From a virus, in IMG/VR virus record IMGVR_UViG_3300020442_001264, positions 1 to 64,000 of that record: DNA of 64,000 nt. One strand, given 5' to 3'. The notes beneath the pieces were generated by a model. That model did no database searches and was not told where the DNA came from. It saw nothing but the letters and a program-made list of their open reading frames with translations. Shown in pieces: positions 32,043 to 64,000 of this stretch. Position numbers and translations under genes: made by a program. The stretch's first letter is position 1; each line of letters opens with the position of its first letter.

Positions 32043-32405
32043 ATGTCGTCTAAACTAGAAAAAGCACTCGAATTCGCTAATTATCGTACAACTTTAAATG
32101 TACAGCACAATGCCTTAAAAGCAAAAGTGCAAACATTATTAAGTTATAGCATAAACGGTGGAACATTTGAAATATCGCAAGAACTGATTTCTTTTATCAA
32201 ATTACTATTAGATAAAGAGTATACTGATGCAGTACTTTTAGATACTTATAATAATCCTATACAAATAGAAAATCTAGACGACTTCTTAGAGGAGATTTTA
32301 TCAAGATACTTTGAAGCAGTAAATGAATATCATGCTGAATATCAAAAAATAAGAAAAGCAAGAAAAGTACACAAATTGATAGATTTAAATTTAGATGACT
32401 CATAA
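32043..32405 (+). CDS. Conserved-looking helical protein of unknown function
   Basis: 120 residues, mostly helical, with no Cys and no membrane segment. It opens MSSKLEKALEFANYRTTLNV and ends in the basic helix YQKIRKARKVHKLIDLN. It is the first gene after the terminator and overlaps the phosphomannomutase gene by 11 bases, so the two are made together. I do not recognise the family. A small structural or assembly protein is possible because of the neighbouring virion genes. Confidence 0.7.
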   Translation: MSSKLEKALEFANYRTTLNVQHNALKAKVQTLLSYSINGGTFEISQELISFIKLLLDKEYTDAVLLDTYNNPIQIENLDDFLEEILSRYFEAVNEYHAEYQKIRKARKVHKLIDLNLDDS

Positions 32406-33090
32406 TTATATATTTGATGTAGACGGCACACTTACACCTAGCAGAGGTTCAATAGACCCAACATTCTATAAACAATTTTTACAGTTTGCAAAAACACACA
32501 GAGTATTTCTAGTTACAGGCAGTGACAAAATGAAAACTGTAGAACAAATAGGATTAGAGATTTATAATACTTGTATGCAAGTATTTAATTGCAGTGGTAA
32601 TGATATCTATTATGGGGATAAACAATTATATAAAAATAATTGGAAACTGCCCCAGGCGGCTAAAGACTGGCTAACAGTAAAATTAAATGAAAGCGAATAT
32701 CCTATTAGAACAGGTTTACATTTTGAAAACAGAACAGGTATGTGTAACTTTAGTGTAGTAGGCAGACATGCAGACCAAGAACAACGCAAAGACTATTATG
32801 CATACGATTGTATCGAAAAAGAACGAGAGAAAATATCACAGGAATTTAATTTAATGTTTCCAAAACTACAAGCAGATGTAGGTGGTGAAACAGGCATAGA
32901 TGTTTTTCAAAAAGGTAAAAACAAAGCACAGGTATTGCAATATTTTAGTAATCCAGAAACAATAAAATTTTATGGTGATAGAACAGATCCTGCAGGAAAC
33001 GATTATTCTATTGCTTGTCTATTAGAACCTCATCAAGTCTATGCTGTCTCAGATTGGAAACATACATCGGAGTTATTAAAAAATGAGTAA
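32395..33090 (+). CDS. Eukaryotic-type phosphomannomutase (HAD superfamily)
   Basis: 231 residues, near the usual 245-250 of this family. The HAD nucleophile motif FDVDGTLTPSR gives Asp8 and Asp10. GSDKMK lies at 42-47. The signature LHFENRTGMCNFSVVGRHA matches the substrate-binding segment of PMM. GGETGIDVFQKGKNKAQVL and FYGDRTDPAGNDYSIA match the PMM C-terminal motifs, including the metal-binding GD and GND. The enzyme would convert mannose-6-phosphate to mannose-1-phosphate for GDP-mannose synthesis in the cytoplasm. Bacteria normally use the unrelated ManB/AlgC type, so this is notable in a phage. It is followed by a glycosyltransferase overlapping by 8 bases. Confidence 0.85.
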   Translation: MTHNYIFDVDGTLTPSRGSIDPTFYKQFLQFAKTHRVFLVTGSDKMKTVEQIGLEIYNTCMQVFNCSGNDIYYGDKQLYKNNWKLPQAAKDWLTVKLNESEYPIRTGLHFENRTGMCNFSVVGRHADQEQRKDYYAYDCIEKEREKISQEFNLMFPKLQADVGGETGIDVFQKGKNKAQVLQYFSNPETIKFYGDRTDPAGNDYSIACLLEPHQVYAVSDWKHTSELLKNE

Positions 33091-33973
33091 AGGTTTTTTG
33101 ATGTTTGCTCATAACAACAATGAGATTGATTACCTAAAACTTGCTGTGGTAAATGCTTTACTTATAAAACAAAATTGTGATATACATGATATCACAGTGG
33201 TAACAAATCAGCACAGTTATGATTATACTGTAGAACAATTAGGAAAAGATTTTGTACATAATGCAATATCTAATATTGTAATTACAGAAAAAGATAAAGA
33301 CTTTAAACGTGCAAATCAAAGACTATATAAAGATACCAGTCATACAAGCAAAGCATTGCCCTTCTACAACGTGGATAGATGCGATGCATACAATATATCA
33401 CCTTATGACGAAACGTTGCTTATTGATGCTGATTATTTAATTTTGAGCAACAGTTTAAACAGTTGTTGGGGACATGAAAATGAATTAATGATGAATTGGT
33501 CATATCAAGATATCATGTCAGAACGAGATGACCCGACATTAAAAAGATTAAGCCCAACAGGAATAACAATGTATTGGGCAACAGTAGTGTATTTTCGAAA
33601 AACAGATTTTGCAAAACAATTTTTTAAAACAGTTGCACATGTAAGAGATCATAGAGAATTTTACCAAGATGTTTACAAATGGCCCGGCAATTTATACAGG
33701 AATGATTACAGTTTCAGTGTTGCCGCACATATGATGAGTGGTTTTGTAGACAAAGGTATACCACAACTTCCAGTCCCCTATCTGTATAAAACTTTTGATA
33801 CAGATGATATTCATAGTGCTCCGGCACCAAATGAACTCATTTTTTATCTTGAGAAACCCAAAAGTTTAGGCGACTTTATGTTATGCAGATGGAGTGGGCT
33901 GGATATCCATGTAATGAATAAATGGGCAATAAATAGAACTAGTAATGTATTAATGGAGTATGCAAATGTATAA
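33083..33973 (+). CDS. GT-A-like glycosyltransferase with DAD motif
   Basis: 296 residues. The N-terminus KGFLMFAHNNNEIDYLKLAV followed by ITVVTNQHSYDYTV looks like the nucleotide-binding half of a GT-A fold. SPYDETLLIDADYLILSN supplies a DxD motif (Asp-Ala-Asp) for metal and sugar nucleotide. It shares its opening, YDETxxxDxD segment and overall plan with the gene at 35829-36692, so these two are paralogues. GT8-like enzymes are the nearest pattern. Donor and acceptor are unknown. It overlaps both the phosphomannomutase gene and the next glycosyltransferase-like gene. Confidence 0.75.
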   Translation: MSKGFLMFAHNNNEIDYLKLAVVNALLIKQNCDIHDITVVTNQHSYDYTVEQLGKDFVHNAISNIVITEKDKDFKRANQRLYKDTSHTSKALPFYNVDRCDAYNISPYDETLLIDADYLILSNSLNSCWGHENELMMNWSYQDIMSERDDPTLKRLSPTGITMYWATVVYFRKTDFAKQFFKTVAHVRDHREFYQDVYKWPGNLYRNDYSFSVAAHMMSGFVDKGIPQLPVPYLYKTFDTDDIHSAPAPNELIFYLEKPKSLGDFMLCRWSGLDIHVMNKWAINRTSNVLMEYANV

Positions 33974-35309
33974 ATTATTACAACCATGGACTCCCGACTT
34001 TAATGCTAAGTATAGAGATATTTTTTATCTAGGTGAAAATCGACATAAGATAAGCATGAACAGTATGGACCACAGTCCTATAACAGATTTGAAACAACTT
34101 GGCTTTGATATAAAATATAGAAATAAAATTCAAGGTGAACATTTTTTAAAATTTCTAATTGAACAAAATGCACAAAAAAATAGTATAACTTATGTAATGA
34201 ATTTTGCATTAAGTGTGTACCCGTGGTATGACTCAGGATCTGAGTTAAAAGATATTATAGAAAGTTTTTCTAGTGTTAAAGGCTTTGATAATTTAAAATG
34301 GCGGTTTGCAAACACATGGGATTTATATTGCATGGAAGAAGAACAAGATAGATTAAATTGGTTTTTAGAATCAACTAGTAAACTTAAACAAGAAAATATT
34401 ATTATGGATTTAGTAAATTTTGATATAGTTGATTTATATAAAGAACATTTACCCAAAGCAGATATTAATTACAAAAGTGTGTATTTTTCAAACTTAGTAC
34501 TTTGTAATATGAGAGGCAGAGATGTTTATGAACCAACTTTAGACAAACGGGAAAAGCATGTTTTAACTTTTAATAATATTGTAAAGACACACAGAAATGC
34601 AATAGTCGATTTATGTGCTGAGCATGATGATAAGACACTTTATAGTTATATAGGTAGAGATATTTTGTTGGACTCTGAAGAATGGGAATTGTTTGATAAA
34701 AATTATACTGCTGGTCCTCATATGGGTTTACTATGGAGACCTCCATACAAATTAATAAATTCTGCTTACACACTTATTAGTACTGAGACATTTTTTGAAG
34801 ACGACAGAACTTACAATTTTGACGACACACGTCGAAGGTCAGCATTCGATAGAAGTCAGAATTGGGAATTATCAGATGATTTCGAAGGCAAACACAGAGA
34901 AAGTGTTGTGTTAAACAAAAACGTTAAATATGCATACATAACAGAAAAAAGTTTTAAATCTGCATTTTTTAAATTGCCTATGATTATTTGTGGTTTGCAA
35001 GGAAGTTTAAAAACTTGGCACAGGTTAGGCTTTGAAAGTTTTCCTGAGTTTTTTGATGAACAATATGATACTATTACAAATGCAGACGAAAGATTAGAAA
35101 AAGTTAAAAGTGAAATTTTAAAAATAATCAATATGGACACAAACGACTTACATGAGTTATACCATAGTAAAATTGTTCAAGAAAAATTAGAACATAATCA
35201 ACAACAATTTTTTAAACATTATTTAAACGATTTTAAATATCACACATTTAACTATAAACAGAATGTTCATCCGTTAATGGATAAAATTATGGAACAATCT
35301 GATGCGTAA
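33960..35309 (+). CDS. Glycosyltransferase-like protein, TEK-motif family (paralogue 1 of 4)
   Basis: 449 residues. The C-terminal block YITEKSFKSAFFKLPMIICG, followed by LGFESFPEFFDEQYD, recurs in the proteins at 46045, 47360 and 48484. It resembles the donor-binding end of GT-B enzymes, fucosyltransferase-like in the TEK(x)nP(x)I(x)G pattern. Upstream, KHVLTFNNIVKTHRNAIVDL matches the same place in paralogues 2 and 4. The start can be either of two in-frame ATGs (33960 or 33966). The preceding stop lies inside this gene, so translation is coupled. Function as a sugar transferase is inferred from the C-terminal motif and neighbours, not from a full family match. Confidence 0.6.
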   Translation: MQMYKLLQPWTPDFNAKYRDIFYLGENRHKISMNSMDHSPITDLKQLGFDIKYRNKIQGEHFLKFLIEQNAQKNSITYVMNFALSVYPWYDSGSELKDIIESFSSVKGFDNLKWRFANTWDLYCMEEEQDRLNWFLESTSKLKQENIIMDLVNFDIVDLYKEHLPKADINYKSVYFSNLVLCNMRGRDVYEPTLDKREKHVLTFNNIVKTHRNAIVDLCAEHDDKTLYSYIGRDILLDSEEWELFDKNYTAGPHMGLLWRPPYKLINSAYTLISTETFFEDDRTYNFDDTRRRSAFDRSQNWELSDDFEGKHRESVVLNKNVKYAYITEKSFKSAFFKLPMIICGLQGSLKTWHRLGFESFPEFFDEQYDTITNADERLEKVKSEILKIINMDTNDLHELYHSKIVQEKLEHNQQQFFKHYLNDFKYHTFNYKQNVHPLMDKIMEQSDA

Positions 35310-35478
35310 GAAAAAACCACCTAAGTTAGGAGATTACATTGAGCATACTTGTAGACTTAACGGCACTTTTCAAGGCACAGTAGTACAACTATTAGGTATG
35401 CAATTTGTTTACGAAACAGGAGACGGCAACACACGTTTTTGTTTATATAGAGAAGAGTGGAAACACATAGAGGAATAA
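35302..35478 (+). CDS. Small basic protein, SH3-like barrel possible
   Basis: 58 residues, starting at an ATG that overlaps the previous stop (ATGCGTAA). It opens MRKKKPPKLGDYIEHTCRLN and continues GTFQGTVVQLLGMQFVYETG, a pattern of short beta strands as in small SH3-like barrels. No catalytic motif is visible. The next gene follows two bases later and shares its GAGGAA ribosome site with the end of this one. Confidence 0.65.
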   Translation: MRKKKPPKLGDYIEHTCRLNGTFQGTVVQLLGMQFVYETGDGNTRFCLYREEWKHIEE

Positions 35479-35480
35479 CA

Positions 35481-35828: not shown

Positions 35829-36692
35829 TTGAGTAAAGGTTATATAGTAATAGCACAAAACAATGATACTGTGGATTATCTAGAACAGGCGTATGCTCTT
35901 GCTTTAAATTTAAAACTCACACAGAGTACTGTAAGTAATCTAACAGTATGTGTAGATCCTAAGACTAAGTCGATGATTACACAAAAACATAAAAACGTTT
36001 TTGATAAAATTGTTGATATACCATGGACTGACAATGCCGCAGATGCAGAATGGAAAATTAATAACAAATGGAAATACTATTATATGACACCATATGATGA
36101 GACTGTTATACTAGACACTGATATGATATTTCCGTTTGATGTAAGCAATTGGTGGGAACATCTAAGTACTAAAGATGTTTGGGCATGTACTAATGTAAAA
36201 ACATATCGTAATGAGTTAGTAGATGATATGTATTATAGATTAGATATGAAAAGAAATAAAATGCCAAATGTTTATACAGCATTTTTCTATTTTAAGAAAA
36301 GTGATACAGCAACAGAATTATTTAAAATGATACAAATTATTTTTGAGAATTGGGAGAGGTTTTATTTTAAATATATGCCTAAAGGTAAACCTGACTGGCT
36401 AAGTGCAGATGTGGCATACAGTCTAGCAATACAATTATTGGGTATAGAAGATAAATGTACTATGGATCATATAGAAGATTTACCTACGTTTATACATATG
36501 AAAAGTTTTGTGCAAAATATAGCAACAAGCGAAATAGAAGAAGATTGGACTAAGAGTATACCAACATATTATAAAAGTTATAAAGATTTTAAAATAGGAA
36601 ATTTTCAAATTACATATCCTTTTCACTATGTGCAAAAGGATTGGATGACAAAAGATAAAATACAGCAGATGGAAATAGAGGTCAATAAATGA
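35829..36692 (+). CDS. GT-A-like glycosyltransferase with DTD motif
   Basis: 287 residues. The start is a TTG immediately after the previous TAA; it gives MSKGYIVIAQNNDTVDYLEQ, which lines up with the start of the protein at 33083. TPYDETVILDTDMIFPFD contains the DxD metal and nucleotide-sugar site. Later, NVYTAFFYFKKSDTATELFK and PDWLSADVAYSLAIQLLG match GT8-like enzymes. It is a paralogue of the 33083 gene with clear divergence, so it may use another acceptor or sugar. Its end overlaps the alternative oxidase start by four bases. Confidence 0.75.
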   Translation: MSKGYIVIAQNNDTVDYLEQAYALALNLKLTQSTVSNLTVCVDPKTKSMITQKHKNVFDKIVDIPWTDNAADAEWKINNKWKYYYMTPYDETVILDTDMIFPFDVSNWWEHLSTKDVWACTNVKTYRNELVDDMYYRLDMKRNKMPNVYTAFFYFKKSDTATELFKMIQIIFENWERFYFKYMPKGKPDWLSADVAYSLAIQLLGIEDKCTMDHIEDLPTFIHMKSFVQNIATSEIEEDWTKSIPTYYKSYKDFKIGNFQITYPFHYVQKDWMTKDKIQQMEIEVNK

Positions 36693-37255
36693 GAAATAAA
36701 ATAGCATTAAGTATGGCAAAGTTTTTTAGATTTTTTGCTGATACATTTTTTGCACAAAGATATGGACATAGAGCAGTAGTATTAGAAACTGTAGCAGGTG
36801 TGCCTGGTATGGTTGCAGGCATGTGGTTACATTTTAAAAGTCTGCGTAAAATGAAAACAGGCTATGGACCTGACATAAGAGAAATGTTAGCAGAAGCAGA
36901 AAATGAAAGAATGCATTTGATGTTCTTTATAGAAATAGCACAACCAAATTGGTTTGAAAGAGCATTAGTGTTAATTGCACAGATAACATTCATGATTTAT
37001 TATTTTTTACTTTACATACTAAGTTATAGATTAGCACACAAAATGATTGCATACTTTGAAGAAGAGGCAGTAAAAAGTTATACAGATTATCTTGCTCTTG
37101 TAGAAAGTGGACAAGTAGAAAATGTTCCTGCTCCACAGTTAGCAATAGATTATTATAAAATGAAAAAGAATGCAAAACTATCTGACTTAATAAAAAAAGT
37201 TAGAGCAGATGAAGAACATCATAGTAAAGTAAATCACAGGTACGCAGATGGATAA
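36689..37255 (+). CDS. Alternative (quinol) terminal oxidase, AOX/PTOX family
   Basis: 188 residues. All di-iron ligands of the family are visible: Glu33 in LETVAGVPGMVAGM, Glu73 and His76 in AENERMHLM, a Glu of FEEEAVKSY near 125, and Glu175 and His178 in RADEEHH. PNWFERALV is another family signature. The enzyme oxidises quinol and reduces oxygen to water without pumping protons, bound to one leaflet of the membrane. Cyanophages are known to carry plastid-type terminal oxidases, which relieve an over-reduced quinone pool. Here it lies among glycan genes, overlapping a glycosyltransferase and an unknown gene, not next to photosynthesis genes. Confidence 0.93.
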   Translation: MRNKIALSMAKFFRFFADTFFAQRYGHRAVVLETVAGVPGMVAGMWLHFKSLRKMKTGYGPDIREMLAEAENERMHLMFFIEIAQPNWFERALVLIAQITFMIYYFLLYILSYRLAHKMIAYFEEEAVKSYTDYLALVESGQVENVPAPQLAIDYYKMKKNAKLSDLIKKVRADEEHHSKVNHRYADG

Positions 37256-37853: not shown

Positions 37854-37861
37854 GATAAATA
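37854..37861 (+). promoter_or_regulatory. T4-type late promoter motif with leader
   Basis: GATAAATA lies just after the stop at 37853. Its predicted start leaves about 25 bases of leader to the ATG at 37892, with AGGA at a usable ribosome-site distance. Confidence 0.55.
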
Positions 37862-37891
37862 TGTGCGTAGTTAACACAACAGGACGCACAT

Positions 37892-38890
37892 ATGGCAAAA
37901 CTAGACGTTACAGAACTAGACATATTTTATATTTCATACGATGAACCAAACTGTGAAGAACATTGGTCAGATTTACTAAACAAAGTACCTTGGGCTAAAC
38001 GTGTTCATGGAGTAAAAGGTTTCGACGCCGCACATAAAGAATGTGCAAATCAATCAGAAACAGATAGATTTATCACCGTAGACGGTGACAACATTGTCAT
38101 GCCTGATTTTTTTGAACAAGTACTAGACATTCCTGATACTGACCACGATGGTAATAACATTGCAGAAAGTATTTTTAGTTGGAACGGCAAAAACATTTTA
38201 AACGGTTTAGTGTATGGAAATGGCGGACTAAAGTGTTGGCCTACAGAATACACAAAAACAATACACACTCACGAAGCCGCCACTGACGGTGAAGGTATGG
38301 AGTTTTGTTGGAAACTTAACTACATACAACTAAATGATACATTTAGCGAAGTACATCAAACAGCCAGTCCATTCCAAGCCTTTAGAGCCGGCTTTCGTGA
38401 AGGTGTTAAAATGAGTTTGGATGAAGGCACAAGAATAAAACCAGATGAGTTTAAAGAAAGAGTCTGGTGGCAGAACTATAATAGATTGCAAACATGGTGC
38501 AACATAGGAAGTGATGTTGAAAATGGATTATGGGCAATTTATGGTGCTAGACTAGGTTGTAAAATGACAGTACTAAGTGATTGGGATACTAACTTGATAT
38601 CAGATTATGATTGGTTTAAAGACTTTTTTAATAATGATGTTCTTCCACGTTTCCCAGGAGATGAGGTTTGTCGATACACAAAAGTTAATTGGAACAAGGA
38701 AATGTTGTACATAGGAATACAAGATTTAGGTGTAGAACTTAATGATAACATAAACGAAATGATGTTGTTTGATCCTAATGAGCAAATGTGTAAATTCTTT
38801 AAAAAGACTTATGTGAATCCAAGACGTTGGGGTGTAATGATTAGAGAAAAACAAATCCAAGATTTATTGGAGAAAGGATTAATTCAATGA
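37892..38890 (+). CDS. Glycosyltransferase-like protein with DGD motif
   Basis: 332 residues. It opens LDVTELDIFYISYDEPNCEE, followed by WAKRVHGVKGFDAAHKECAN and FITVDGDNIVMPDFFEQVLD. The VDGDN element is placed like the DxD of GT-A glycosyltransferases. A second marker is GKNILNGLVYGNGGLKCWPT. The same module, VD..., an acidic loop and YGGV/GGLK with a Pro, is seen twice or more in the gene at the right end (63354), so the two are related. This type is familiar from marine myoviruses, but its donor and acceptor are unknown. It begins a new late transcription unit that continues into the first radical SAM gene. Confidence 0.6.
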   Translation: MAKLDVTELDIFYISYDEPNCEEHWSDLLNKVPWAKRVHGVKGFDAAHKECANQSETDRFITVDGDNIVMPDFFEQVLDIPDTDHDGNNIAESIFSWNGKNILNGLVYGNGGLKCWPTEYTKTIHTHEAATDGEGMEFCWKLNYIQLNDTFSEVHQTASPFQAFRAGFREGVKMSLDEGTRIKPDEFKERVWWQNYNRLQTWCNIGSDVENGLWAIYGARLGCKMTVLSDWDTNLISDYDWFKDFFNNDVLPRFPGDEVCRYTKVNWNKEMLYIGIQDLGVELNDNINEMMLFDPNEQMCKFFKKTYVNPRRWGVMIREKQIQDLLEKGLIQ

Positions 38891-39048
38891 AAACAGGTTG
38901 GACAATATGGAAATATGCCATAGGTTCATTCAGTGATGAGAAAACAAAAGACTATGACAATTACGTTGCAGTAATAAGAACATTTGTAGTTTTAGTAAAC
39001 GTTGTTTGTGCATTTTTTATTATGGCAAACATCATACATAATTGGTAA
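38887..39048 (+). CDS. Small single-span membrane protein
   Basis: 53 residues, ATG overlapping the previous stop (ATGA). It begins KTGWTIWKYAIGSFSDEKTK, a charged N-terminal half. The second half is one hydrophobic segment (IRTFVVLVNVVCAFFIMANI) that should span the membrane. Its stop overlaps the ATG of the radical SAM gene by one base (TAATG). Function unknown. Its tight coupling to that gene makes a membrane tether or partner worth considering. Confidence 0.65.
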   Translation: MKTGWTIWKYAIGSFSDEKTKDYDNYVAVIRTFVVLVNVVCAFFIMANIIHNW

Positions 39049-40685
39049 TGAGTATATACGATCAAGCCGCTGATAAGGCTAAAGAACAATTAGATAATAT
39101 AAGCCCAACAATGTGCTATGCAAAATGGAGCCAAGTGTCTATGCATTTGACTAATGGCATGACGCATAGTTGCTACCATCCGCCTACACACAAAATACCG
39201 TTAGAAGAATTAGATAAAAATATTACAGCATTACACAATACAGAAGAAAAGAAAGAACAACGTAGGCAGATGCTTAAAGGGGAAAGGCCCGAAGGTTGTA
39301 GTTATTGTTGGAATATAGAAGATACAGGTTCGAGGAGCGATAGAGTTTATCGTAGTGGAGAATATTGGGCACAGGAAAGCAGAGAAGATATAATGGATGC
39401 TGGTGCTAGTGGTAATATTAATCCTCGGTATGTGGAAGTTAATTTTAATCAAGCATGTAATTTTAAATGTAGTTATTGTAGTCCACATTTAAGCACAAGT
39501 TGGCAAGAAGAAATAGAAGAATTTGGAGAATATCCAACGACTGCTCCACATAACAACATTACTAGTCTAACTAACAAAGGTCTTATGCCACTTAAAATAA
39601 GCCAAGAAGATAATCCATACGTTACAGCATTTTGGAAATGGTGGCCCGAGATGTATAAAACATTACGAGTGTTTCGTATGACAGGCGGTGAACCTTTAAT
39701 GGACAAGAACACATTTAAAGTATTAGATTATGTATATGAGCAACCAAACAAAGACTTAGAATTAAGTATAACATCAAATATGTGTCCAGTCAATGATGCA
39801 TTGTTTGAAAAGTTTTTATCAAGTGTTAAAAAACTAGATAATGTACAACATGGTGCGGAAGTATATGTTAAGGATCCTTTAGATGGAACAGACTGGCAAA
39901 CATGGCAACATTTTATAATAGGCGAAGAAGCAAAACGATATCACGACAGCGACTTACCAGTAATAGAGCGACATGATATACCGCAAACATTCTTACAAGT
40001 CGGACAATGTGAGGAACAAGACAATAACAGTTATACATACATTTATGAATACAACGATAAAGCATATCATAACTTTAGTGTGTTTGTAAGTTTAGATGGT
40101 TGGGGAGAACAAGCAGAATATATGCGTAATGGTATGGACTTTGACCAACTATGGAATAATGTACATAGGTTTTTAGATGAAACTAGATATACTAGTGTTA
40201 ATTTTATTAATACATTTAATTGTTTAAGTGTAACAAGTTTTAAAGAATTTTTAGAAGGAATATTAGAATTAAGAGAAAAGTGGAGTAAAGAAAATCAATT
40301 TGCAATGGGCTGGGAAGTACCGGAACAACGTATATGGTTTGATATACCTTTACTGAGAAATCCTGCTTGGCAAAACTTACAAGTATTGCCTAGTCAATAT
40401 CAGTCTTACATGGAAGAAGCAATACAGTTTATGGAACAAAATATTGCAAATGAAGATTATGTTGATTACAAAGGATTTAAAGATTTTGAAATTGCAAAAG
40501 CAAAACGTAACTTAGAAATTATGAAAAAAGAGTTGCCTCAAGAAAAATTAATTAGAGACAGAGCAGACTTTAATAAATTTTTTACAGAGCATGACTTAAG
40601 GCGTAACACAAACTTTTTAGCAACATTTCCAGAAATGCATGATTTTTGGGCAATGTGCGAAGAGGCGGAGGCACTTAATGGATAG
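39048..40685 (+). CDS. Radical SAM protein with N-terminal SPASM/twitch-like domain (paralogue 1)
   Basis: 545 residues. The radical SAM core has Cys137, Cys141 and Cys144 in CNFKCSYC, for the iron-sulfur cluster that cleaves S-adenosylmethionine, and MTGGEPLMD for cofactor binding. Before the core, a Cys-rich region (MCYAKWS, then HSCYHPPTHK, then CSYCWNIEDTG) resembles a SPASM/twitch auxiliary-cluster domain, here N-terminal. This CxxxW...C...CxxC(W/Y)xxE pattern recurs in all eight paralogues; this one and the 42970 protein share a CYHPP/CHHPP variant. It is the longest after 42970, with an insertion around residues 270-340. The start at the ATG in TAATG couples it to the small membrane protein. 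Substrate unknown. Confidence 0.85.
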   Translation: MSIYDQAADKAKEQLDNISPTMCYAKWSQVSMHLTNGMTHSCYHPPTHKIPLEELDKNITALHNTEEKKEQRRQMLKGERPEGCSYCWNIEDTGSRSDRVYRSGEYWAQESREDIMDAGASGNINPRYVEVNFNQACNFKCSYCSPHLSTSWQEEIEEFGEYPTTAPHNNITSLTNKGLMPLKISQEDNPYVTAFWKWWPEMYKTLRVFRMTGGEPLMDKNTFKVLDYVYEQPNKDLELSITSNMCPVNDALFEKFLSSVKKLDNVQHGAEVYVKDPLDGTDWQTWQHFIIGEEAKRYHDSDLPVIERHDIPQTFLQVGQCEEQDNNSYTYIYEYNDKAYHNFSVFVSLDGWGEQAEYMRNGMDFDQLWNNVHRFLDETRYTSVNFINTFNCLSVTSFKEFLEGILELREKWSKENQFAMGWEVPEQRIWFDIPLLRNPAWQNLQVLPSQYQSYMEEAIQFMEQNIANEDYVDYKGFKDFEIAKAKRNLEIMKKELPQEKLIRDRADFNKFFTEHDLRRNTNFLATFPEMHDFWAMCEEAEALNG

Positions 40686-41255: not shown

Positions 41256-41262
41256 TAATAAA

Positions 41263-42360: not shown

Positions 42361-42361
42361 G

Positions 42362-42369
42362 AGTAAATA
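42362..42369 (+). promoter_or_regulatory. T4-type late promoter motif, leaderless spacing
   Basis: AGTAAATA ends six bases before the ATG at 42375, the fourth copy with this exact geometry. It would drive the SDR gene, two radical SAM genes and three glycosyltransferase-like genes. Confidence 0.6.
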
Positions 42370-42374
42370 CAACA

Positions 42375-56206: not shown

Positions 56207-57483
56207 ACGAGATAAAAGAATTAGCAAAGGGCGATGCTTTTTGTATCCTTCCTTGGATACACATGCACCCATGGCCCGATGGTAGAGTGTTTACTTGTTG
56301 TCTGAGCGAACATCATAGTCCAATTGGCAATTTAAATGAAATGGACTTAGACGAATGTTACAACAGTGACAATATGAAAAAGTTTAGATTGGACATGCTT
56401 AACAACAAAAAGATTTCTAATTGTACAAGATGTTATGAACTAGAAGATATAGGGCACGACACTTTGCGTAAAAGAAGTAACAGCGAATTTATAGAAGAAA
56501 AATTTGCATACCACAACAACAAAGCAGAAATTGTACAGCAAACAAATGATGATGGTAGTGTTGATAAAGTTCACTTAACTTATATGGATATACGTTTTAG
56601 TAATATATGCAATATGAGATGTAGAACATGCGGACCTGATTTAAGTAGTCAATGGTTTGAAGATGCAGTAGACAGTAAGTTCAATAGAACACCTACACAA
56701 AAGATATTACAAATAAGAAAAGGTAATACTGCATTTATGGAACAATTTGATCCATACTTAGATACAGTAGAGAAAATATATTGGGCAGGCGGTGAGCCGT
56801 TGATAATGGACGAGCATTGGTATATAATGAATAAGTTAGTTGAGATGGGCAGAACTAAAAAAGAAACTCCTATGAGAATCTTTTACAATACAAACTTTAG
56901 TAAATTAACATACAAGGATCAAGATGCTATAGAGTTGTGGAAAAACTTTGATGAGGTTAGTGTAGGTGCAAGTTTAGATGCTGGTTGGAAGAAAGGAGAG
57001 TACTTACGCAAAGGTACAATATGGAGTGAAACACTTGCAAACAGAGAACGTATGAAACAAGAACTACCAGACAAAGACTTTAATATAAGTTGTACAGTCA
57101 GTATGTTTAATGCGTTAGATGTCTGCGACTTTTATAAAAAGTTATGTGAGATAGAATTTATAGAACCTAAGGACTTTGGTATTAATATATTATTAGGTAA
57201 GCATGTACATAGGGCAACAGTATTGCCTGAACACATGAGAAAGCAAGTCCAAAAGAACATTGAAGAAACATTAGACTGGATAGGCGACCGTGATACAGTT
57301 GGTCGTGTTACAGATACATTTAAAAGTTTACATCAGTTTATGGATGGTGATGATAGTCATTTGTTATCTGATAGTTTACAAGAATGTAAAGAGATGGATA
57401 GATTTAGAAGTGAAACATTGTTTGATGTGTTTCCAGAATTAGAAGATTTACGACCTTACTATGATGAGGAAATTGATGACTAG
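56179..57483 (+). CDS. Radical SAM protein with N-terminal SPASM/twitch-like domain (paralogue 6)
   Basis: 434 residues. N-terminal region: AFCILPWIHMHPWPDGRVFT followed by CCLSEHHSPIGNLNE and NCTRCYELEDIGHDTLRKR. The GNLNE with DLDECYNSDNMKKFRLDML copies the usual SPASM sequence (an iGNL...l.e.wns...k..R arrangement) closely. Core CNMRCRTC has Cys144, Cys148 and Cys151; YWAGGEPLIMD follows. It shares RCRTC and GPDLSSQW with paralogue 5 (RCRTC, NPASSSKW). The ATG at 56179 is 28 bases inside the desaturase gene. Confidence 0.87.
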   Translation: MGNKINKTIDEIKELAKGDAFCILPWIHMHPWPDGRVFTCCLSEHHSPIGNLNEMDLDECYNSDNMKKFRLDMLNNKKISNCTRCYELEDIGHDTLRKRSNSEFIEEKFAYHNNKAEIVQQTNDDGSVDKVHLTYMDIRFSNICNMRCRTCGPDLSSQWFEDAVDSKFNRTPTQKILQIRKGNTAFMEQFDPYLDTVEKIYWAGGEPLIMDEHWYIMNKLVEMGRTKKETPMRIFYNTNFSKLTYKDQDAIELWKNFDEVSVGASLDAGWKKGEYLRKGTIWSETLANRERMKQELPDKDFNISCTVSMFNALDVCDFYKKLCEIEFIEPKDFGINILLGKHVHRATVLPEHMRKQVQKNIEETLDWIGDRDTVGRVTDTFKSLHQFMDGDDSHLLSDSLQECKEMDRFRSETLFDVFPELEDLRPYYDEEIDD

Positions 57484-58699: not shown

Positions 58700-59322
58700 G
58701 CAAAGTATTATTAAAAACATCAGGTAGAACAGGCTCGCACTTGTTGTTAGACAAGTATGAGAAAGAAGGTCATAGGGTATACTTCACTGCTACACATGAC
58801 ACAAAATCATTGTACGAATATGATTTAACAGAAAGTCTAATTCCGTTTAACTTTGATTTTATTGTGCAATGTCATTTAATGCAACTACCAAAAGACACAT
58901 CACAATGGGATTTAATTTTTAACGTAAGAGGCGATATGATATCTCAGATATGTAGCAGTATAATTGCACACCACACAGATGTTTGGCATGGTGTTGCAGA
59001 AATTAAAGAAAAGATTGTAGTAGATAAACACACAATTAAACAACAAGTAATTAAGCATGTAAGTTTTAATACTTACATGAAATATGTTTGCGAATACTTG
59101 CCGTGGAAGTCTACACAAAGAATATCAACAGAAGAAATACTACAAGAGGATTGGACTCATTTAGAATACAAAAAATCTATTAAACATGAAGATGCTATAG
59201 ATGATTATGAGAATGTCAGGAAGTATGTTGCAAATGTACAAGCAAGATTTTATGACTTAGGTGTAGCATATGGTAAAACAGAATTTGATAAAAGGTACGG
59301 AGACAAATATGACATACAGTAA
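58696..59322 (+). CDS. Sulfotransferase-like protein (weak)
   Basis: 208 residues. KVLLKTSGRTGSHLLLDKYE at the N-terminus resembles the PAPS 5'-phosphosulfate loop of sulfotransferases (a RTGS(T/H)LL arrangement at 11-17). IFNVRGDMISQICSSIIAHH comes where the 3'-phosphate-binding strand and Arg/Ser motif are expected (R then S). It lacks a signal peptide. A phage Stf0-like sulfotransferase would add sulfate from PAPS to a glycan, and the APS-kinase-like domain at 41263 could supply the donor. Both links are inference. Similar P-loops occur in unrelated kinases, so confidence is moderate. Confidence 0.5.
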   Translation: MSKVLLKTSGRTGSHLLLDKYEKEGHRVYFTATHDTKSLYEYDLTESLIPFNFDFIVQCHLMQLPKDTSQWDLIFNVRGDMISQICSSIIAHHTDVWHGVAEIKEKIVVDKHTIKQQVIKHVSFNTYMKYVCEYLPWKSTQRISTEEILQEDWTHLEYKKSIKHEDAIDDYENVRKYVANVQARFYDLGVAYGKTEFDKRYGDKYDIQ

Positions 59323-60610
59323 AACATTTTGTCCTTACCCTTGGATACATGTTATGACACAACCAAGCAGTACAGTGAACTTTTGTTGTGTTGCTAACGG
59401 TCAAATTAAAAATGATGACGGTAGTGTTTTAATGTTAAACAAAGGTGATGATATATCATCTGTTTGGAATAACAATCATTATAAAAAAATTAGACGTCAA
59501 ATGATAGAAGGCGATAAAGTAGAAGGTTGTGAACCTTGCTATGATTTAGAAGATTTAGGAATTCCTAGTTATAGAGAAAACTATATAAAGGATTGGTTAG
59601 GCTTTCATAGGAATGCTGACCAAATTAAAAACATCATTGACAAAAGTATTGACAATGATTATGTTGTCGAAGAAACACCACAGTACTTAGATTTTAGATT
59701 AGGCACACTATGTAACTTGCGTTGCAGAATGTGTCAGAGTCAAAACAGTAGTGCTATATATAAAGAATTAAAAGATGAGGAATTATACAATGAAGAAGAA
59801 CGAAAGTTTATCGTGGAAACAAGTCATTGGGGTGACTTTAGCGATTATACTCAGCCTTGGTTTGATGATCCTGGGTTCCTTAGCACAGTGGAAACATGGT
59901 TGCCTAATGTCAACAGGCTTTACTTCACAGGGGGTGAGCCCACAATTATACAACGTGTGTATTGGATCCTCGAAAAATGTGTCGAGCTCGGAATAAATCA
60001 AAACATAGATTTAGTATTTAATAGTAATATGACAAACATACAACCAAGGTTTTTAGACTTAATAGCCAAGTTTAAAGATGTGTTGATGTGTTTAAGTGTT
60101 GATGGCTATGGAACAACAAACGAATATATAAGAAGTGGTAGCACTTGGAGTATAGTAGACAAACACATTAGAGACTATGCAAAGTCAGACGTAGTAGGTA
60201 ATATACTGTTTAGTCCTGTAGTACAAATTTACAACATACTAGACATAACAAAACTATTGGACTATGCAGAAGAAATAACAAACGAGAGTGGTCGTAGAAT
60301 AGATATCAGTTTCTTGTTAAACAATTATCCAAAGTGCTTGGATATAAGAAACTTGCCTAAAGGTATAAGAGTTGAAGCACAATTAACTTTACATGAGTGG
60401 TTGCAGAACAGCACATACTTTGATGACGATGAACGTAACAGACAAAGTGTGTTAGGATTAATAAATGCATTAGACGACAAAAATGTAAACGAAGATGCAG
60501 AACATCAAATGCAAGTGTTTAGGAAGTATACAGAATTGTTAGACAATAAACGAAATCAAAGTATCGAAAAACAACTACCTAAATTATGGAGTAGACTCAA
60601 GTGGACATAA
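59309..60610 (+). CDS. Radical SAM protein with N-terminal SPASM/twitch-like domain (paralogue 8)
   Basis: 433 residues from the ATG at 59309, with GGAG at the right distance; an earlier in-frame start at 59270 would add 13 residues lying within the preceding gene. KTFCPYPWIHVMTQPSSTVN followed by FCCVANGQIKNDDG and GCEPCYDLEDLGIPSYREN form the auxiliary domain. Core CNLRCRMC has Cys135, Cys139 and Cys142; YFTGGEPTIIQR is the SAM loop. MCLSVDGYGTTNEYIRSGST is the conserved strand. It closes the radical SAM run and overlaps the SGNH hydrolase gene by 10 bases. Confidence 0.87.
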   Translation: MTYSKTFCPYPWIHVMTQPSSTVNFCCVANGQIKNDDGSVLMLNKGDDISSVWNNNHYKKIRRQMIEGDKVEGCEPCYDLEDLGIPSYRENYIKDWLGFHRNADQIKNIIDKSIDNDYVVEETPQYLDFRLGTLCNLRCRMCQSQNSSAIYKELKDEELYNEEERKFIVETSHWGDFSDYTQPWFDDPGFLSTVETWLPNVNRLYFTGGEPTIIQRVYWILEKCVELGINQNIDLVFNSNMTNIQPRFLDLIAKFKDVLMCLSVDGYGTTNEYIRSGSTWSIVDKHIRDYAKSDVVGNILFSPVVQIYNILDITKLLDYAEEITNESGRRIDISFLLNNYPKCLDIRNLPKGIRVEAQLTLHEWLQNSTYFDDDERNRQSVLGLINALDDKNVNEDAEHQMQVFRKYTELLDNKRNQSIEKQLPKLWSRLKWT

Positions 60611-61335
60611 CAAATAAAAAATATTTGTATGCAGTTGGTTGTAGCCATATGGCAGGTAGTGAAGTGATAGAGTTTGGCAATACTGCAAGGACACATGAAT
60701 CTATTAAGTATGCTTGGCCCGGACTACTAGCAGAACATTATGGATTGCATTATATAAATGATTCAGAACCAGGCGGTAGTAATGACTATATGGTTAGGAG
60801 TGTTATGCATTTTGTGAACAAATGGCTATCACAAGATAGAGATCCTAGTGAACTATTAGTAGTTATAGGTTGGACAACAGACGAACGCATAGAGTTTACA
60901 CATGAGAACAATGGTATAATGGAACATTTCCATTGGGCTAATGGTTGTGATTGGAGACCATTTTATAAAGATGGTAAAGGTCCTAAATTTGAAAATTGGT
61001 TTAAAGCATTGCAATTATATCATACCGACTTTGACTTTGGTAGAATTAAACGTGTAATAAATATTACTTTAATAGATGCTTTTTTAAAAAGTAACAATAT
61101 AGACTACATTCAAGTTAATAATTGTGCTAAGATGGATAAAGGACAATGGGAGTTTTTAAATATAGAGCACATGGTTAAAACATTTCCGTTTGATACATTT
61201 ATAGAACCATATGATAGTTTCGTTGACCAATATAAAGAAACACACAAAGAACATTTTTCAGATTGGTTACATGCAGATAAACATGTGCATAATTTATATT
61301 TTAAAAAACTTAAACAGAGGTTAGATAATGACTAA
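60601..61335 (+). CDS. SGNH/GDSL-type hydrolase
   Basis: 244 residues from a GTG at 60601. YAVGCSHMAG gives the block I nucleophile Ser15 (GCSH in place of GDSL). EPGGSNDYMVRS gives the block III Gly/Asn region. LLVVIGWTTDERIEF is the central strand, and WLHADKHVHNLYFKKL supplies the Asp-x-x-His of block V. SGNH enzymes remove or add acyl groups on lipids, proteins and polysaccharides. Phage versions in such regions are common and uncharacterised. Here an O-acyl editing role on the glycan is plausible. Confidence 0.72.
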   Translation: MDITNKKYLYAVGCSHMAGSEVIEFGNTARTHESIKYAWPGLLAEHYGLHYINDSEPGGSNDYMVRSVMHFVNKWLSQDRDPSELLVVIGWTTDERIEFTHENNGIMEHFHWANGCDWRPFYKDGKGPKFENWFKALQLYHTDFDFGRIKRVINITLIDAFLKSNNIDYIQVNNCAKMDKGQWEFLNIEHMVKTFPFDTFIEPYDSFVDQYKETHKEHFSDWLHADKHVHNLYFKKLKQRLDND

Positions 61336-61543
61336 TAAAGATAAAGAAGACTTTAACGGCTTAGGTCCTGTCGATAAAGTTATTGATATGGGAGACTTAC
61401 AAGGTAATCCTATACCAGAAGAAAAAGACACAGAACAGAAGGACGTGGATTTAGATGATGTTGAACTTTCCGAAGAAGAGGAAGAATTGTTAAAAAAGAA
61501 ATTAGAACAGATTCGTAAAAACGATCCATTTATATATAGATGA
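61328..61543 (+). CDS. Small acidic protein of unknown function
   Basis: 71 residues and strongly acidic. It opens MTNKDKEDFNGLGPVDKVID, with GNPIPEEKDTEQKDVDLDDV in the centre. The end is a charged helix ELSEEEEELLKKKLEQIRKN followed by DPFIYR. It has no Cys and no membrane segment. It overlaps the genes on both sides (8 and 4 bases). Its size and position next to radical SAM genes make it a possible scaffold or modified peptide, but it carries no leader or core repeat typical of RiPP precursors. It could equally be a small assembly protein. Confidence 0.65.
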   Translation: MTNKDKEDFNGLGPVDKVIDMGDLQGNPIPEEKDTEQKDVDLDDVELSEEEEELLKKKLEQIRKNDPFIYR

Positions 61544-63093
61544 GAATATTAGGAATTAGTTGTATGTTTCATGACGCGAGTACATGCGTTATAGAAGATG
61601 GTGAAATTTTATTTGCCGGACATGCAGAAAGATACAGTAGAGTAAAAAACGATGCATACTTAAATCAACGTTTGATGAAAGATACATTAAAACATGGTTT
61701 ACCAGATATAATCGTTTTACACGAAAGTACAAGATTAAAAAACAGAAGAAGATTAAAACAATTTACTTGGAGCAGTATTAAGGCGGCTATTACGGAAATA
61801 ACTGCTGAAGAATGGATTGCAAAGTTTTATCCACAGTTAAAAGGCATACCAGTAGTTAATTGTTTACATCACGAAAGCCATGCGGCGGCAGGCATACTTA
61901 CTTCACCAGAACATTTTGATGATGCGGCTATAATGACAATAGATGCTATAGGTGAATTCCAAACATCAACAATTTATAGATGGGAGACACATCGTAGTGG
62001 TGATACTAGAATGCAACTGCTACATGACACAAATTTTCCAAACAGTTTAGGTTTATTTTATAGTGCTATTACAAGTGCTGTTGGTTTGAAACCTATGGAA
62101 GATGAATATATCTTAATGGGTATGGCGGCATATGGTAAGCCATTATATGTAAATAAAATTAACAAAGAATTATTTAAACACCCAAATGCAACAGACAACT
62201 TGCGTGAATGTTTACATACTGTGAATATGAGTAAAGGTTTACCTAAAAACTTTATGAGTGCAGAAGCATTAGCAGACGAGCAAACACAATTTGATTTAGC
62301 CGCAAGTGCTCAACAAGTATGTGAAGAAAGAATATTGGCTTATGCCAAGTTAGCAAAAGAATACACACAAAGCAATAACTTAGTATTCATGGGAGGGTGT
62401 GCATTAAATTGTGTAGCAAACAGTAGACTATATGAACTGTTTAATAATATACACATTATGCCTAATCCAGGAGATGCCGGTAGTGCCTTAGGTGCCGCGG
62501 CATTGTATTGGCATAAACATACTAGCAAAAGAGTAAATTGGAATGGTCCATATACTGGATATAATATTTCAGGTGAATGGCCAAAAGAAAAATTTTTACA
62601 AAGTATGCGTAAAGGACAAATATTTGGTGTAGCAAATGGTAAAGCAGAATATGGTCCTAGGGCTCTTGGTAACAGAAGTTTATTTGCTGATCCTAGAGGC
62701 GAAGAAATAAAAGATAAAGTAAATGAAATAAAACGTAGGCAAAAGTTTAGACCTTTTGCTCCTATAGTATTAGAAGAACACGCCAGTGATTGGTTTGAAA
62801 TGCCTGGTGGTGTTATAGATAGTCCTTACATGCAATTTGTTGCAAAATGTAAGAGACCAGAAATTATACCTGCGGTAGTACATGGGGATGGTACAAGCAG
62901 AGTGCAAACGGTTAACAGAAAAAATCATCCGGATTTATATCATGCTATGAGACAGTGGCATGCTGAGTCAGGGTGTCCAGTTGTTCTAAATACAAGTTTA
63001 AATATCAAAGGACAACCAATTGTTAATACTGAAAAAGAAGCAGAAGAGTTTGCAACTCATTATAAGGTGCCAGTTCATGTCAGAGACGACTAA
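61540..63093 (+). CDS. NodU/CmcH-type carbamoyltransferase
   Basis: 517 residues. MRILGISCMFHDASTCVIED and LFAGHAERYSRVKND are the N-terminal signature of the family. VVNCLHHESHAAAG holds the metal-binding His110, His111 and His114. IMTIDAIGEFQTSTIYRWET, then VFMGGCALNCVANSRLY, match the ATP/metal site of the ASKHA core. The C-terminal domain with GKAEYGPRALGNRSLFADPR and KFRPFAPIVLEE is also diagnostic, as is LNTSLNIKGQPIV. The enzyme transfers a carbamoyl group from carbamoyl phosphate to a hydroxyl on a sugar or antibiotic. Marine T4-type phages often carry one. Confidence 0.93.
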   Translation: MRILGISCMFHDASTCVIEDGEILFAGHAERYSRVKNDAYLNQRLMKDTLKHGLPDIIVLHESTRLKNRRRLKQFTWSSIKAAITEITAEEWIAKFYPQLKGIPVVNCLHHESHAAAGILTSPEHFDDAAIMTIDAIGEFQTSTIYRWETHRSGDTRMQLLHDTNFPNSLGLFYSAITSAVGLKPMEDEYILMGMAAYGKPLYVNKINKELFKHPNATDNLRECLHTVNMSKGLPKNFMSAEALADEQTQFDLAASAQQVCEERILAYAKLAKEYTQSNNLVFMGGCALNCVANSRLYELFNNIHIMPNPGDAGSALGAAALYWHKHTSKRVNWNGPYTGYNISGEWPKEKFLQSMRKGQIFGVANGKAEYGPRALGNRSLFADPRGEEIKDKVNEIKRRQKFRPFAPIVLEEHASDWFEMPGGVIDSPYMQFVAKCKRPEIIPAVVHGDGTSRVQTVNRKNHPDLYHAMRQWHAESGCPVVLNTSLNIKGQPIVNTEKEAEEFATHYKVPVHVRDD

Positions 63094-63352
63094 TCCAGAT
63101 TTAGAATTAATAAACAAAAAATGTAAAGAGCCTTGGCTTTTCGATGACAGTCTTACTGATGCAGAAAGAATGTATTGGAAGTTAAAAGGTGTTTGCCATG
63201 TGTGTAAATATCCTGTGGCTTATCACAAAGACGACTGTCCGTTTAGTGATGTGCAATTACACTTTGCACAAATAGACAAAGAATTATATGCTGTTACAGA
63301 TATAGGATTTGTAAACAGTGAAAAGTTGAAACAACTGCTTAACAAGAAATAA
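63077..63352 (+). CDS. Small zinc-ribbon-like protein
   Basis: 91 residues from the ATG at 63077; the frame continues upstream but only within the carbamoyltransferase gene. CHVCKYPVAYHKDDCP carries CxxC plus a His and a Cys, enough for a small zinc site. MYWKLKGVCHVCKYPVAYHK and LHFAQIDKELYAVTDIGFVN are the most distinctive parts. No membrane span. It probably binds zinc and a partner. The gene overlaps the carbamoyltransferase by 17 bases, and the next gene begins one base after its stop. Confidence 0.65.
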   Translation: MSETTNPDLELINKKCKEPWLFDDSLTDAERMYWKLKGVCHVCKYPVAYHKDDCPFSDVQLHFAQIDKELYAVTDIGFVNSEKLKQLLNKK

Positions 63353-63353
63353 C

Positions 63354-64000
63354 ATGTACGATATTTTTTACATCGGCGATAACAACACACTAAAAGAAAG
63401 ATTACCTTTTGCTAATCAAGTAAACAATATTGATGAAATAAAATCTAATACAAAATTGTACTGGTTAGTAGACAGTAATACTAAAATTACCGATTGGGAA
63501 TTATTTGATTTCAAACCAGATGTGCATACAGAAAAATATGTACATGTGTGGAAATGGAATCAAGAAAATTATGGCGGAGTTAGTCTTCTGCCAAAAGGGG
63601 GAAGTGAGGAAACTGTATGGCATAACAAAGTTGTTTGTAAGAAACACTTTGACATATTGTTTGAGAATACACCAGGGAACTATTTTAAACAGAACCCATA
63701 CAGTACTCACGTATGGTGTGTAGATAAAGACTACATACTCAATGATGATATAGATTGGGCACCAGGGAACTTTGAACCAGACTATATCCACAGTTTCCAT
63801 TTGCGTGGACAACTTGAACACAAGTATCCAGAACTTGAAGGGGGAGTTAAGTTATACCCACGCGAATGGTCATCTGCAGAAACAAAGTATCACAAATTCT
63901 TAGATGCAAATATCACATACCCAATACTGTATGTAAACGATGTTGATGATTATGCTCAACGTGATATATTAGAAGATGATTATGTTTGGCTAATAGATAA
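63354..64000 (+). CDS. Repeat-containing glycosyltransferase-like protein (3' end outside window)
   Basis: At least 215 codons, open to the right edge. MYDIFYIGDNNTLKERLPFA resembles the opening of the 37892 protein (DIFYISYDEP). An internal module appears twice: WLVDSNTKITDWELFDFKPD with YVHVWKWNQENYGGVSLLPK, then WCVDKDYILNDDIDWAPGNF with YIHSFHLRGQLEHKYPELEG and GGVKLYPREW. A third copy seems to begin at the edge (YVWLIDK). The VDxD-like start and GGVxLxP end echo VDGDN and GGLKCWP in the 37892 protein. That suggests duplicated GT-A-like half domains. Function unproven. Confidence 0.55.
   Translation, partial: MYDIFYIGDNNTLKERLPFANQVNNIDEIKSNTKLYWLVDSNTKITDWELFDFKPDVHTEKYVHVWKWNQENYGGVSLLPKGGSEETVWHNKVVCKKHFDILFENTPGNYFKQNPYSTHVWCVDKDYILNDDIDWAPGNFEPDYIHSFHLRGQLEHKYPELEGGVKLYPREWSSAETKYHKFLDANITYPILYVNDVDDYAQRDILEDDYVWLID

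What the first reader, a model, noticed from the sequence alone, without database searches (positions are those of the whole stretch)
32395..64000. Possible complete glycan-making and decorating system carried by the phage
One accessory half holds functions for sugar activation (phosphomannomutase, kinase-nucleotidyltransferase), oxidation (nucleotide-sugar dehydrogenase, SDR), amination (PLP enzyme), transfer (GT-A-like and TEK-family genes), and decoration (carbamoyltransferase, 2OG oxygenase, SGNH hydrolase, sulfotransferase-like), with eight radical SAM enzymes between them. Late promoter motifs precede its blocks. The simplest reading is a virion or envelope glycan not yet described. The individual families are known in marine phages; the combined set is the novelty.
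Basis: inference. Interest (0 to 1): 0.85.

Follow-up and report, generated by a model that had tools for sequence, protein, structure and literature searches.

The report
Late-expressed sugar-decorating gene cassette in phages
Large uncultured phages related to T4 carry a conserved block of sugar-handling genes, including eight radical enzymes, that follows the tail-fibre genes and has the same promoter-like motif, so the phage probably coats its tail, or its host's surface, with an unusual sugar, although the sugar has not been seen and parts of such blocks were reported before.

Summary
The window lies in an 84-kb fragment of a large T4-like phage; one relative is circularly complete at about 340 kb. 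After the tail-fibre genes come about 30 same-strand genes: eight intact twitch-type radical SAM enzymes, a nucleotide-sugar dehydrogenase, a carbamoyltransferase, DxD and GT-B-fold transferase-like proteins, SDR, PLP, 2OG and SGNH enzymes. Gene order is conserved and genes are under purifying selection. A late-promoter-like motif (RRTAAATA) precedes cassette blocks and several virion genes, but not replication genes, in relatives. The closest cellular dehydrogenase sits in a bacterial glycan island, and related radical SAM genes alternate with glycosyltransferases in a vibriophage isolate.

"Complete" is not supported: no tested undecaprenyl initiation or export family was found, and several listed genes are not core. 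Virion versus host-surface acceptor is unresolved; I favour the virion. Glycosyltransferases with radical SAM cassettes beside tail fibres were reported in pelagimyophages, so this is a new variant of a known kind.

The parts
32395..33090 (+). PMM-like HAD-IIB protein; in some relatives only
   Evidence: PF03332 E 2.9e-25; HAD-SF-IIB; absent in G002
33083..33973 (+). DxD protein of a two-paralogue transferase-like family, core
   Evidence: alignment A3, invariant D115-x-D117; no Pfam hit; GT8 link not supported by hhalign
33960..35309 (+). TEK-family GT-B-like transferase, variable
   Evidence: A1; fold of paralogue at 46045
35829..36692 (+). second DxD paralogue, core
   Evidence: A3
36689..37255 (+). 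alternative oxidase; passenger, not part of the conserved cassette
   Evidence: PF01786 E 1.5e-68; AOX in only 5 of 38 related records and outside the cassette in G004, G007, G014
37854..37861 (+). RRTAAATA late-promoter-like motif before the 37892 gene
   Evidence: conserved before this gene in six genomes at 36-46 nt
37892..38890 (+). highly conserved GT-A-like protein with VDGDN motif; block 1 start
   Evidence: 83-96% identical in five relatives, dN/dS 0.017; A2; weak GT-A fold matches
39042..40685 (+). N-twitch radical SAM 1
   Evidence: NF033640
40899..41255 (+). SCP2/alkyl-sulfatase C-terminal-like small protein, non-core
41263..42027 (+). kinase plus nucleotidyltransferase-like fusion, sporadic
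   Evidence: PF01583 E 5e-9, PF01467; 2 of 50 close loci
42362..42369 (+). RRTAAATA motif before SDR
   Evidence: absent in G001
42375..42977 (+). SDR; block 2 start
   Evidence: PF00106 E 3.6e-7
42970..44640 (+). N-twitch radical SAM 2
   Evidence: 318.8 bits
44627..46042 (+). N-twitch radical SAM 3
   Evidence: 297.9 bits
46045..47370 (+). TEK GT-B-like, variable
   Evidence: model pLDDT 81, pTM 0.86; GT-B matches E 7.7e-5
47360..48487 (+). TEK GT-B-like, variable
   Evidence: A1
48484..49671 (+). TEK GT-B-like, variable
   Evidence: A1
49651..49658 (+). RRTAAATA motif before NDP-sugar dehydrogenase
   Evidence: 54-64 nt upstream in 5 of 6 genomes
49710..51026 (+). nucleotide-sugar dehydrogenase family member; block 3 start
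   Evidence: PF00984/PF03721; catalytic Cys kept, NPYLIAMG replaces NPEFLAEG
51030..51821 (+). 2OG-Fe(II) oxygenase
   Evidence: PF13640 E 1e-12
51805..52812 (+). PLP fold-type-I aminotransferase-like
   Evidence: weak PF00155; TIGR01140 weak
52793..54211 (+). N-twitch radical SAM 4
   Evidence: 303 bits
54208..55467 (+). N-twitch radical SAM 5
   Evidence: 350.5 bits
55445..56206 (+). membrane fatty-acid desaturase, non-core
   Evidence: PF00487 E 3.3e-11; DesA family
56179..57483 (+). N-twitch radical SAM 6
   Evidence: 357 bits
57461..58699 (+). N-twitch radical SAM 7
   Evidence: 347.8 bits
   Evidence: no profile hit
59270..60610 (+). N-twitch radical SAM 8
   Evidence: 341.2 bits
60601..61335 (+). 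SGNH/DUF6071 hydrolase or acyltransferase-like
   Evidence: PF19547 E 1.2e-10
61328..61543 (+). conserved 71-aa acidic protein
61540..63093 (+). NodU/CmcH-type carbamoyltransferase, core
   Evidence: PF16861 E 3e-53, PF02543 E 5.6e-41
63354..64000 (+). start of a 1312-aa protein (to record position 67292): about 11 repeats of roughly 100 aa, the last like the 37892 protein
   Evidence: hhalign prob 98.3%, E 2.5e-14

Best explanation
The block is a glycan-making and glycan-modifying cassette transcribed late from promoter-like motifs shared with virion genes. Cytoplasmic DxD and GT-B-type transferases (33083, 35829, 37892, the TEK genes, the 1312-aa protein) attach sugars. The NDP-sugar dehydrogenase, SDR and PLP enzyme alter a nucleotide sugar. 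The eight twitch radical SAM enzymes, the 2OG oxygenase and the carbamoyltransferase then remodel the glycan or its acceptor. The most likely acceptor is the tail-fibre/virion proteins encoded just upstream, with the variable TEK genes changing the outermost sugar between phages. Shown: the genes and their intactness, co-occurrence, synteny, purifying selection, a shared late-promoter-like motif, linkage of relatives to other glycan genes, and absence of four lipid-linked initiation/export families. Inferred: enzyme substrates, reaction order, the virion as acceptor, and late timing itself.
For: Synteny and co-occurrence: radical SAM genes in 70 of 80 NDP-sugar-dehydrogenase loci against 3 of 80 AOX control loci (p 5e-30, not corrected for relatedness), TEK 57 against 3, carbamoyltransferase 31 against 4, and 548 of 548 cassette genes on one strand in the closer loci. 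The cassette follows gp25-gp6-giant fibre-fibre genes in G001, G002, G004, G014 and G021. RRTAAATA occurs at near-constant spacing before gp25, TF28 and TF31 and before portal and sheath where these were found; in the cassette, before the 37892 gene in six genomes, NDPDH in five of six and SDR in four of five; replication and nucleotide genes lack it. TEK fold matches GT-B enzymes. The closest cellular dehydrogenase (63% identity, same NPYLIAMG motif) lies among GT2/GT4, methyltransferase and GDP-mannose dehydratase genes in a proteobacterial MAG. A Bacteriovoracia homologue adjoins a radical SAM/SPASM gene. Four related radical SAM genes lie among two GT8 genes and one weak GT4-like gene in Vibrio phage K566. 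No PF02397, PF01943, PF00953 or PF04138 in 13 records.
Against: No product has been observed and no radical SAM of this family has a substrate known to me. The 37892 fold match is weak (best E 5e-3), and the two DxD proteins match no Pfam family and failed the GT8 comparison. Missing export genes do not exclude use of host export. The desaturase, SCP2 and SGNH genes hint at lipids. A shorter version of the cassette (7 loci beside DNA ligase) has no tail genes mapped beside it, which fits less well with fibre modification. Both Glu positions of the classical UGDH motif are replaced, so ordinary uronate formation is doubtful.
Confidence: 0.45

Rival explanations
1. The cassette remodels the host envelope (LPS O-chain, capsule or glycolipid), using host carrier and export, to block superinfection or alter adsorption, as proposed for cyanophage and pelagimyophage sugar genes.
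For: Published interpretation for similar islands (PMC7029224; PMC7824862); the closest cellular dehydrogenase is in a bacterial surface-glycan-type island; desaturase, SCP2 and SGNH genes suggest lipid.
Against: Late-promoter-like motifs shared with virion genes would act too late for superinfection exclusion; four initiation/flippase families absent from all 13 records tested; desaturase, SCP2 and SDR are missing from many syntenic cassettes.
Confidence: 0.3
2. The radical SAM enzymes modify peptides or proteins rather than sugars: for example side chains of the giant fibre, or a small secreted product, with the conserved 71-aa acidic protein as a possible precursor.
For: SPASM/twitch radical SAM enzymes often act on peptides (general knowledge); profile neighbours in the PDB include SkfB and other maturases as well as viperin, cytosylglucuronate decarboxylase and BtrN; a conserved 71-aa ORF.
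Against: The small ORF was detected in only 7 of 50 close loci while radical SAM genes are in 48 (some loci are cut short); the independent vibriophage cluster pairs radical SAM with glycosyltransferases.
Confidence: 0.12
3. DNA hypermodification of the phage genome.
For: Carbamoyltransferases, 2OG, PLP and radical SAM enzymes can occur in such systems (general knowledge).
Against: Thymidylate synthase/hydroxymethylase family PF00303 absent from 37 of 38 related records including the 340-kb circular genome; the cassette sits with tail genes and late-type motifs.
Confidence: 0.03
4. A collection of unrelated auxiliary genes in a hypervariable island, without joint function.
For: Some members are clearly passengers or sporadic (AOX, desaturase, kinase-nucleotidyltransferase); the island is variable.
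Against: Conserved order and strand, dN/dS 0.02-0.27 and association far above control.
Confidence: 0.05

Closest known systems
Pelagimyophage host-recognition island (PMC7029224)
   Same: Hypervariable region with tail-fibre genes, several glycosyltransferases, UDP-glucose dehydrogenase and radical SAM gene cassettes; proposed surface-glycan role.
   Different: That report describes smaller phages and treats radical SAM cassettes as variable additions. Here a fixed eight-enzyme order, the carbamoyltransferase/1312-aa protein core and conserved late-promoter-like motifs are shown, in a lineage with one genome of about 340 kb.
Cyanophage P-SSM2/S-SSM7 LPS clusters and the S-SSM6a carbamoyltransferase/2OG cluster (PMC3037559, PMC7824862)
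   Same: Phage-borne sugar activation, transfer and carbamoylation genes with 2OG enzymes.
   Different: Those are epimerase- and classical-GT-rich; the jumbo-phage review does not mention radical SAM enzymes.
HTVC008M and Bellamy carbamoyltransferase / NadE-like / NDP-sugar dehydrogenase operons
   Same: Homologous dehydrogenase (48% and 64%) with carbamoyltransferase, methyltransferase and glycosyltransferase neighbours.
   Different: No radical SAM genes or 37892-type protein found there; NadE-like gene present there, not seen here.
T4-like marine virus with 12 radical SAM genes (TARA_ERS488813_N000010, PMC5332604)
   Same: Many radical SAM genes in one T4-like genome.
   Different: Interpreted there as iron-sulfur metabolism; no glycan link in the passages read.
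Vibrio phages K566/KVP40 radical SAM genes
   Same: N-twitch radical SAM genes; in K566 interleaved with two GT8 genes and a weak GT4-like gene.
   Different: About 20-25% identity; no dehydrogenase or carbamoyltransferase homologue in the stretch examined.
Glycosylated capsids of mycobacteriophages Che8 and Rita (as cited in PMC11256854)
   Same: Precedent that phage structural proteins can carry glycans.
   Different: Few glycosyltransferases, no radical SAM cassette (own knowledge).

Membership tests
N-twitch radical SAM proteins (NF033640) | score over the curated cut-off of 170 bits | tested here: met
   all eight 298-357 bits; no control genome over cut-off
N-twitch radical SAM proteins (NF033640) | CxxxCxxC cluster motif and N-terminal four-Cys site intact | tested here: met
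   columns C119, C123, C126 and C13, C74, C77 invariant, C32 nearly so
N-twitch radical SAM proteins (NF033640) | substrate class | not testable with these tools
   no substrate known for the family (own knowledge)
UDP-glucose/GDP-mannose dehydrogenases | profile match over NAD and central domains | tested here: met
   PF03721, PF00984; 27 PDB sequences
UDP-glucose/GDP-mannose dehydrogenases | catalytic Cys (GGxCxPKD) | tested here: met
   GGACHPRD or GGGCHPRD in 46 of 53 homologues
UDP-glucose/GDP-mannose dehydrogenases | Glu residues of NPEFLxEG | tested here: not met
   NPYLIAMG or NPYLIAQG in 48 of 53 homologues; superfamily member, not a proven UDP-glucose 6-dehydrogenase
NodU/CmcH carbamoyltransferases | both Carbam_trans N and C domains | tested here: met
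GT-B glycosyltransferases (TEK genes) | GT-B fold | tested here: met
   confident model of one member; best match GT4 LmbT E 7.7e-5, TM about 0.37; no sequence family hit
GT-A glycosyltransferases (37892 gene) | GT-A fold with DxD | tested here: inconclusive
   VDGDN invariant; fold matches only E 5e-3
GT8 (33083, 35829) | profile similarity to GT8 | tested here: not met
   no Pfam hit; hhalign probability 0.5% to one GT8 protein; only an invariant DxD
Self-contained O-antigen/capsule or Gtr system | initiating transferase or flippase | tested here: not met
   PF02397, PF01943, PF00953, PF04138 absent in 13 records; Wzy polymerase family and ABC exporters not tested
DNA hypermodification system | thymidylate-synthase-type hydroxymethylase | tested here: not met
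   absent in 37 of 38 related records
Virion protein glycosylation system | glycan on virion proteins | not testable with these tools
   needs mass spectrometry
T4-type late transcription unit | late-promoter-like motif shared with structural genes | tested here: met
   RRTAAATA, a motif fitted on the window and then tested in five relatives; TATAAATA not present as such

The most novel reading that the evidence does not exclude
A virus-encoded late pathway that builds a radical-SAM-modified, carbamoylated glycan on tail-fibre proteins, with interchangeable GT-B enzymes varying the terminal sugar: a dedicated chemistry for coating virions in large marine T4-like phages and, in reduced form, vibriophages.
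Probability: 0.25. Interest if true: 0.85.

Novelty: new variant of a known kind. Interest (0 to 1): 0.62.

Why it matters
Eight conserved radical SAM enzymes in one phage operon suggest chemistry that simple O-antigen modification would not need. The shared late-type motif with virion genes links this otherwise unexplained enzyme family to phage assembly or late surface change. Because phage isolates on Vibrio natriegens carry relatives of the radical SAM genes, the open question of what phage radical SAM and sugar genes do becomes directly testable.

Tried and rejected
A direct IMG/VR scan with the 33960 protein found no relatives; relatives came from tblastn on neighbouring loci instead. 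Genome scans with the radical SAM sequence and alignment failed. PHROGs gave no function for the transferase-like genes. Canonical TATAAATA was rejected as the late motif. GT8 membership was rejected. DNA hypermodification was rejected. AOX was rejected as a cassette member. The generic sigma-70 promoter scan was no better than shuffles. No paper on C48C1 was found. In one search the row labelled UDPGDH in the 'early' set for WIN, G001 and G002 is the cassette dehydrogenase itself, so the early-gene count there (4 of 46) is overstated. The notebook entry that 48/53 dehydrogenases carry NPYLIAMG counts one NPYLIAQG.
Full report
Setting. The window is bases 1-64000 of an 84,029-base IMG/VR virus record. 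It has T4-type baseplate genes (gp5-, gp25- and gp6-like), a 6289-aa giant gene and three smaller fibre-like genes up to 31978. A 20-kb stretch of it (40-60 kb) has no DNA-level match among 50,697 phage records. A 339,794-base relative (G004) begins and ends inside the cassette; its two ends map side by side on another contig with about 210 bases of overlap, so it is circularly permuted and apparently complete. A second relative contig is 250,519 bases long.

What is in the block. From 32395 to record position 69167 most bases are coding on the + strand, mostly with overlapping or near-touching genes. Profile searches support eight N-twitch radical SAM enzymes with intact cluster cysteines, a nucleotide-sugar dehydrogenase, 2OG oxygenase, SDR, carbamoyltransferase, PMM/HAD and SGNH-like genes. 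The four 'TEK' genes form one family, and one member gives a confident GT-B-like model. Two paralogues at 33083 and 35829 share an invariant DxD, but GT8 membership was not supported. The 37892 protein is the most conserved member, carries VDGDN and has only weak GT-A fold matches; it is homologous to the last repeat of a 1312-aa protein after the carbamoyltransferase. The sulfotransferase-like gene was not confirmed.

Is it a unit? Around 80 viral loci found with the dehydrogenase, radical SAM genes occur within 10 kb in 70, TEK genes in 57 and carbamoyltransferase in 31. The same counts around 80 alternative-oxidase loci are 3, 3 and 4. The Fisher p value ignores relatedness, but several different gene arrangements share the association, and all 548 mapped cassette genes in the closer loci share one strand. 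Between the window and G001, dN/dS is 0.02-0.27 for every gene tested. In G014 the most conserved cassette genes (33083, 35829, 37892, radical SAM 2 and 3, dehydrogenase) are 68-88% identical while gp25 and gp6 are 49% and 45%, so this part of the cassette either moves between lineages or is more constrained than the baseplate. Alternative oxidase, kinase-nucleotidyltransferase, desaturase, SCP2, SDR, PMM and the sulfotransferase-like gene are sporadic.

When is it expressed? The T4 consensus TATAAATA is depleted (1 against 11 expected). RRTAAATA, noticed in the window, was then tested in five relatives. It lies 13 nt before gp25 and before one possible start of TF28, 33-39 nt before TF31, and before portal and sheath where these were found; in the cassette it lies before the 37892 gene (six genomes), SDR (four of five) and the dehydrogenase (five of six). 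Polymerase, helicase, recA, uvsW, sbcC/D, ribonucleotide reductase, AOX and cytochrome genes lack it. It is not seen before every structural gene (MCP, protease, terL, gp5 and gp6 lack it), as expected if these are transcribed from promoters further upstream. This supports late transcription; timing itself is inferred.

What chemistry? The dehydrogenase keeps the catalytic cysteine but replaces both Glu positions of NPEFLxEG (NPYLIAMG or NPYLIAQG in 48 of 53 homologues), so plain uronate formation should not be assumed. A scan of one genome for each of about 85,000 cellular species gave only two relatives: one lies among GT2/GT4, methyltransferase and GDP-mannose dehydratase genes, the other directly after a radical SAM/SPASM gene. 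In Vibrio phage K566, four related radical SAM genes are interleaved with two GT8 genes and a weak GT4-like gene. These independent contexts support a link between these enzymes and glycans. The substrate of the radical SAM enzymes is unknown.

Acceptor. Position after the fibre genes, the late-type motif and the absence of four tested undecaprenyl initiation and flippase families in 13 records favour cytoplasmic decoration of virion proteins. Host export could still be used, polymerases and ABC exporters were not tested, lipid-type genes are present in some versions, and a short version lies beside DNA ligase; host-envelope remodelling therefore keeps substantial weight. DNA hypermodification is unlikely.

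Prior art. Pelagimyophage host-recognition islands with glycosyltransferases and radical SAM cassettes (PMC7029224), a T4-like virus with 12 radical SAM genes (PMC5332604), cyanophage LPS and carbamoyltransferase clusters (PMC7824862, PMC3037559) and the HTVC008M/Bellamy operons make this a new variant of a known kind. New here are the fixed eight-radical-SAM order in a jumbo lineage, the late-type motif shared with virion genes, the altered dehydrogenase motif, the repeat protein and the vibriophage parallel. I did not find these stated in the papers searched, a library that lacks most subscription journals.

Noticed in passing
36689-37255; record 81356-81799: Alternative oxidase (PF01786 E 1.5e-68) and, elsewhere in the record, a class I cytochrome c-like protein with glutaredoxins beside it. 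At least 251 IMG/VR stretches encode this oxidase, with a cytochrome c homologue within 10 kb in 33 of 80 loci; phage C48C1 has it annotated as hypothetical. A possibly unreported respiratory gene pair of marine phages.
   Followed up: partly
49710-51026: Dehydrogenase family with both Glu positions of the UGDH active-site motif replaced (NPYLIAMG) but the catalytic Cys kept; two bacterial MAG homologues carry NPYLIAMG and NPFLIAMG.
   Followed up: partly
63354-64000 (record 63354-67292): 1312-aa protein of about 11 repeats; related proteins in other contigs vary from 857 to 2096 aa; only the last repeat keeps a clear DxD.
   Followed up: partly
L172-L185 (G014): The most conserved cassette genes are 68-88% identical to the window while gp25/gp6 are 45-49%: transfer of the cassette or unusual constraint.
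   Followed up: partly
L227 (Vibrio phage K566): Four N-twitch radical SAM genes interleaved with two GT8 genes and a weak GT4-like gene in an isolate, a PagP gene close by.
   Followed up: partly
G007 and L016-L021: Short dehydrogenase-2OG-PLP-radical SAM-carbamoyltransferase version beside a DNA ligase gene, with no tail genes mapped beside it.
   Followed up: partly
9383-28252: 6289-aa giant gene upstream of the cassette, present in relatives; not analysed in detail.
   Followed up: no
61328-61543: Conserved 71-aa acidic protein between the SGNH and carbamoyltransferase genes, function unknown.
   Followed up: no
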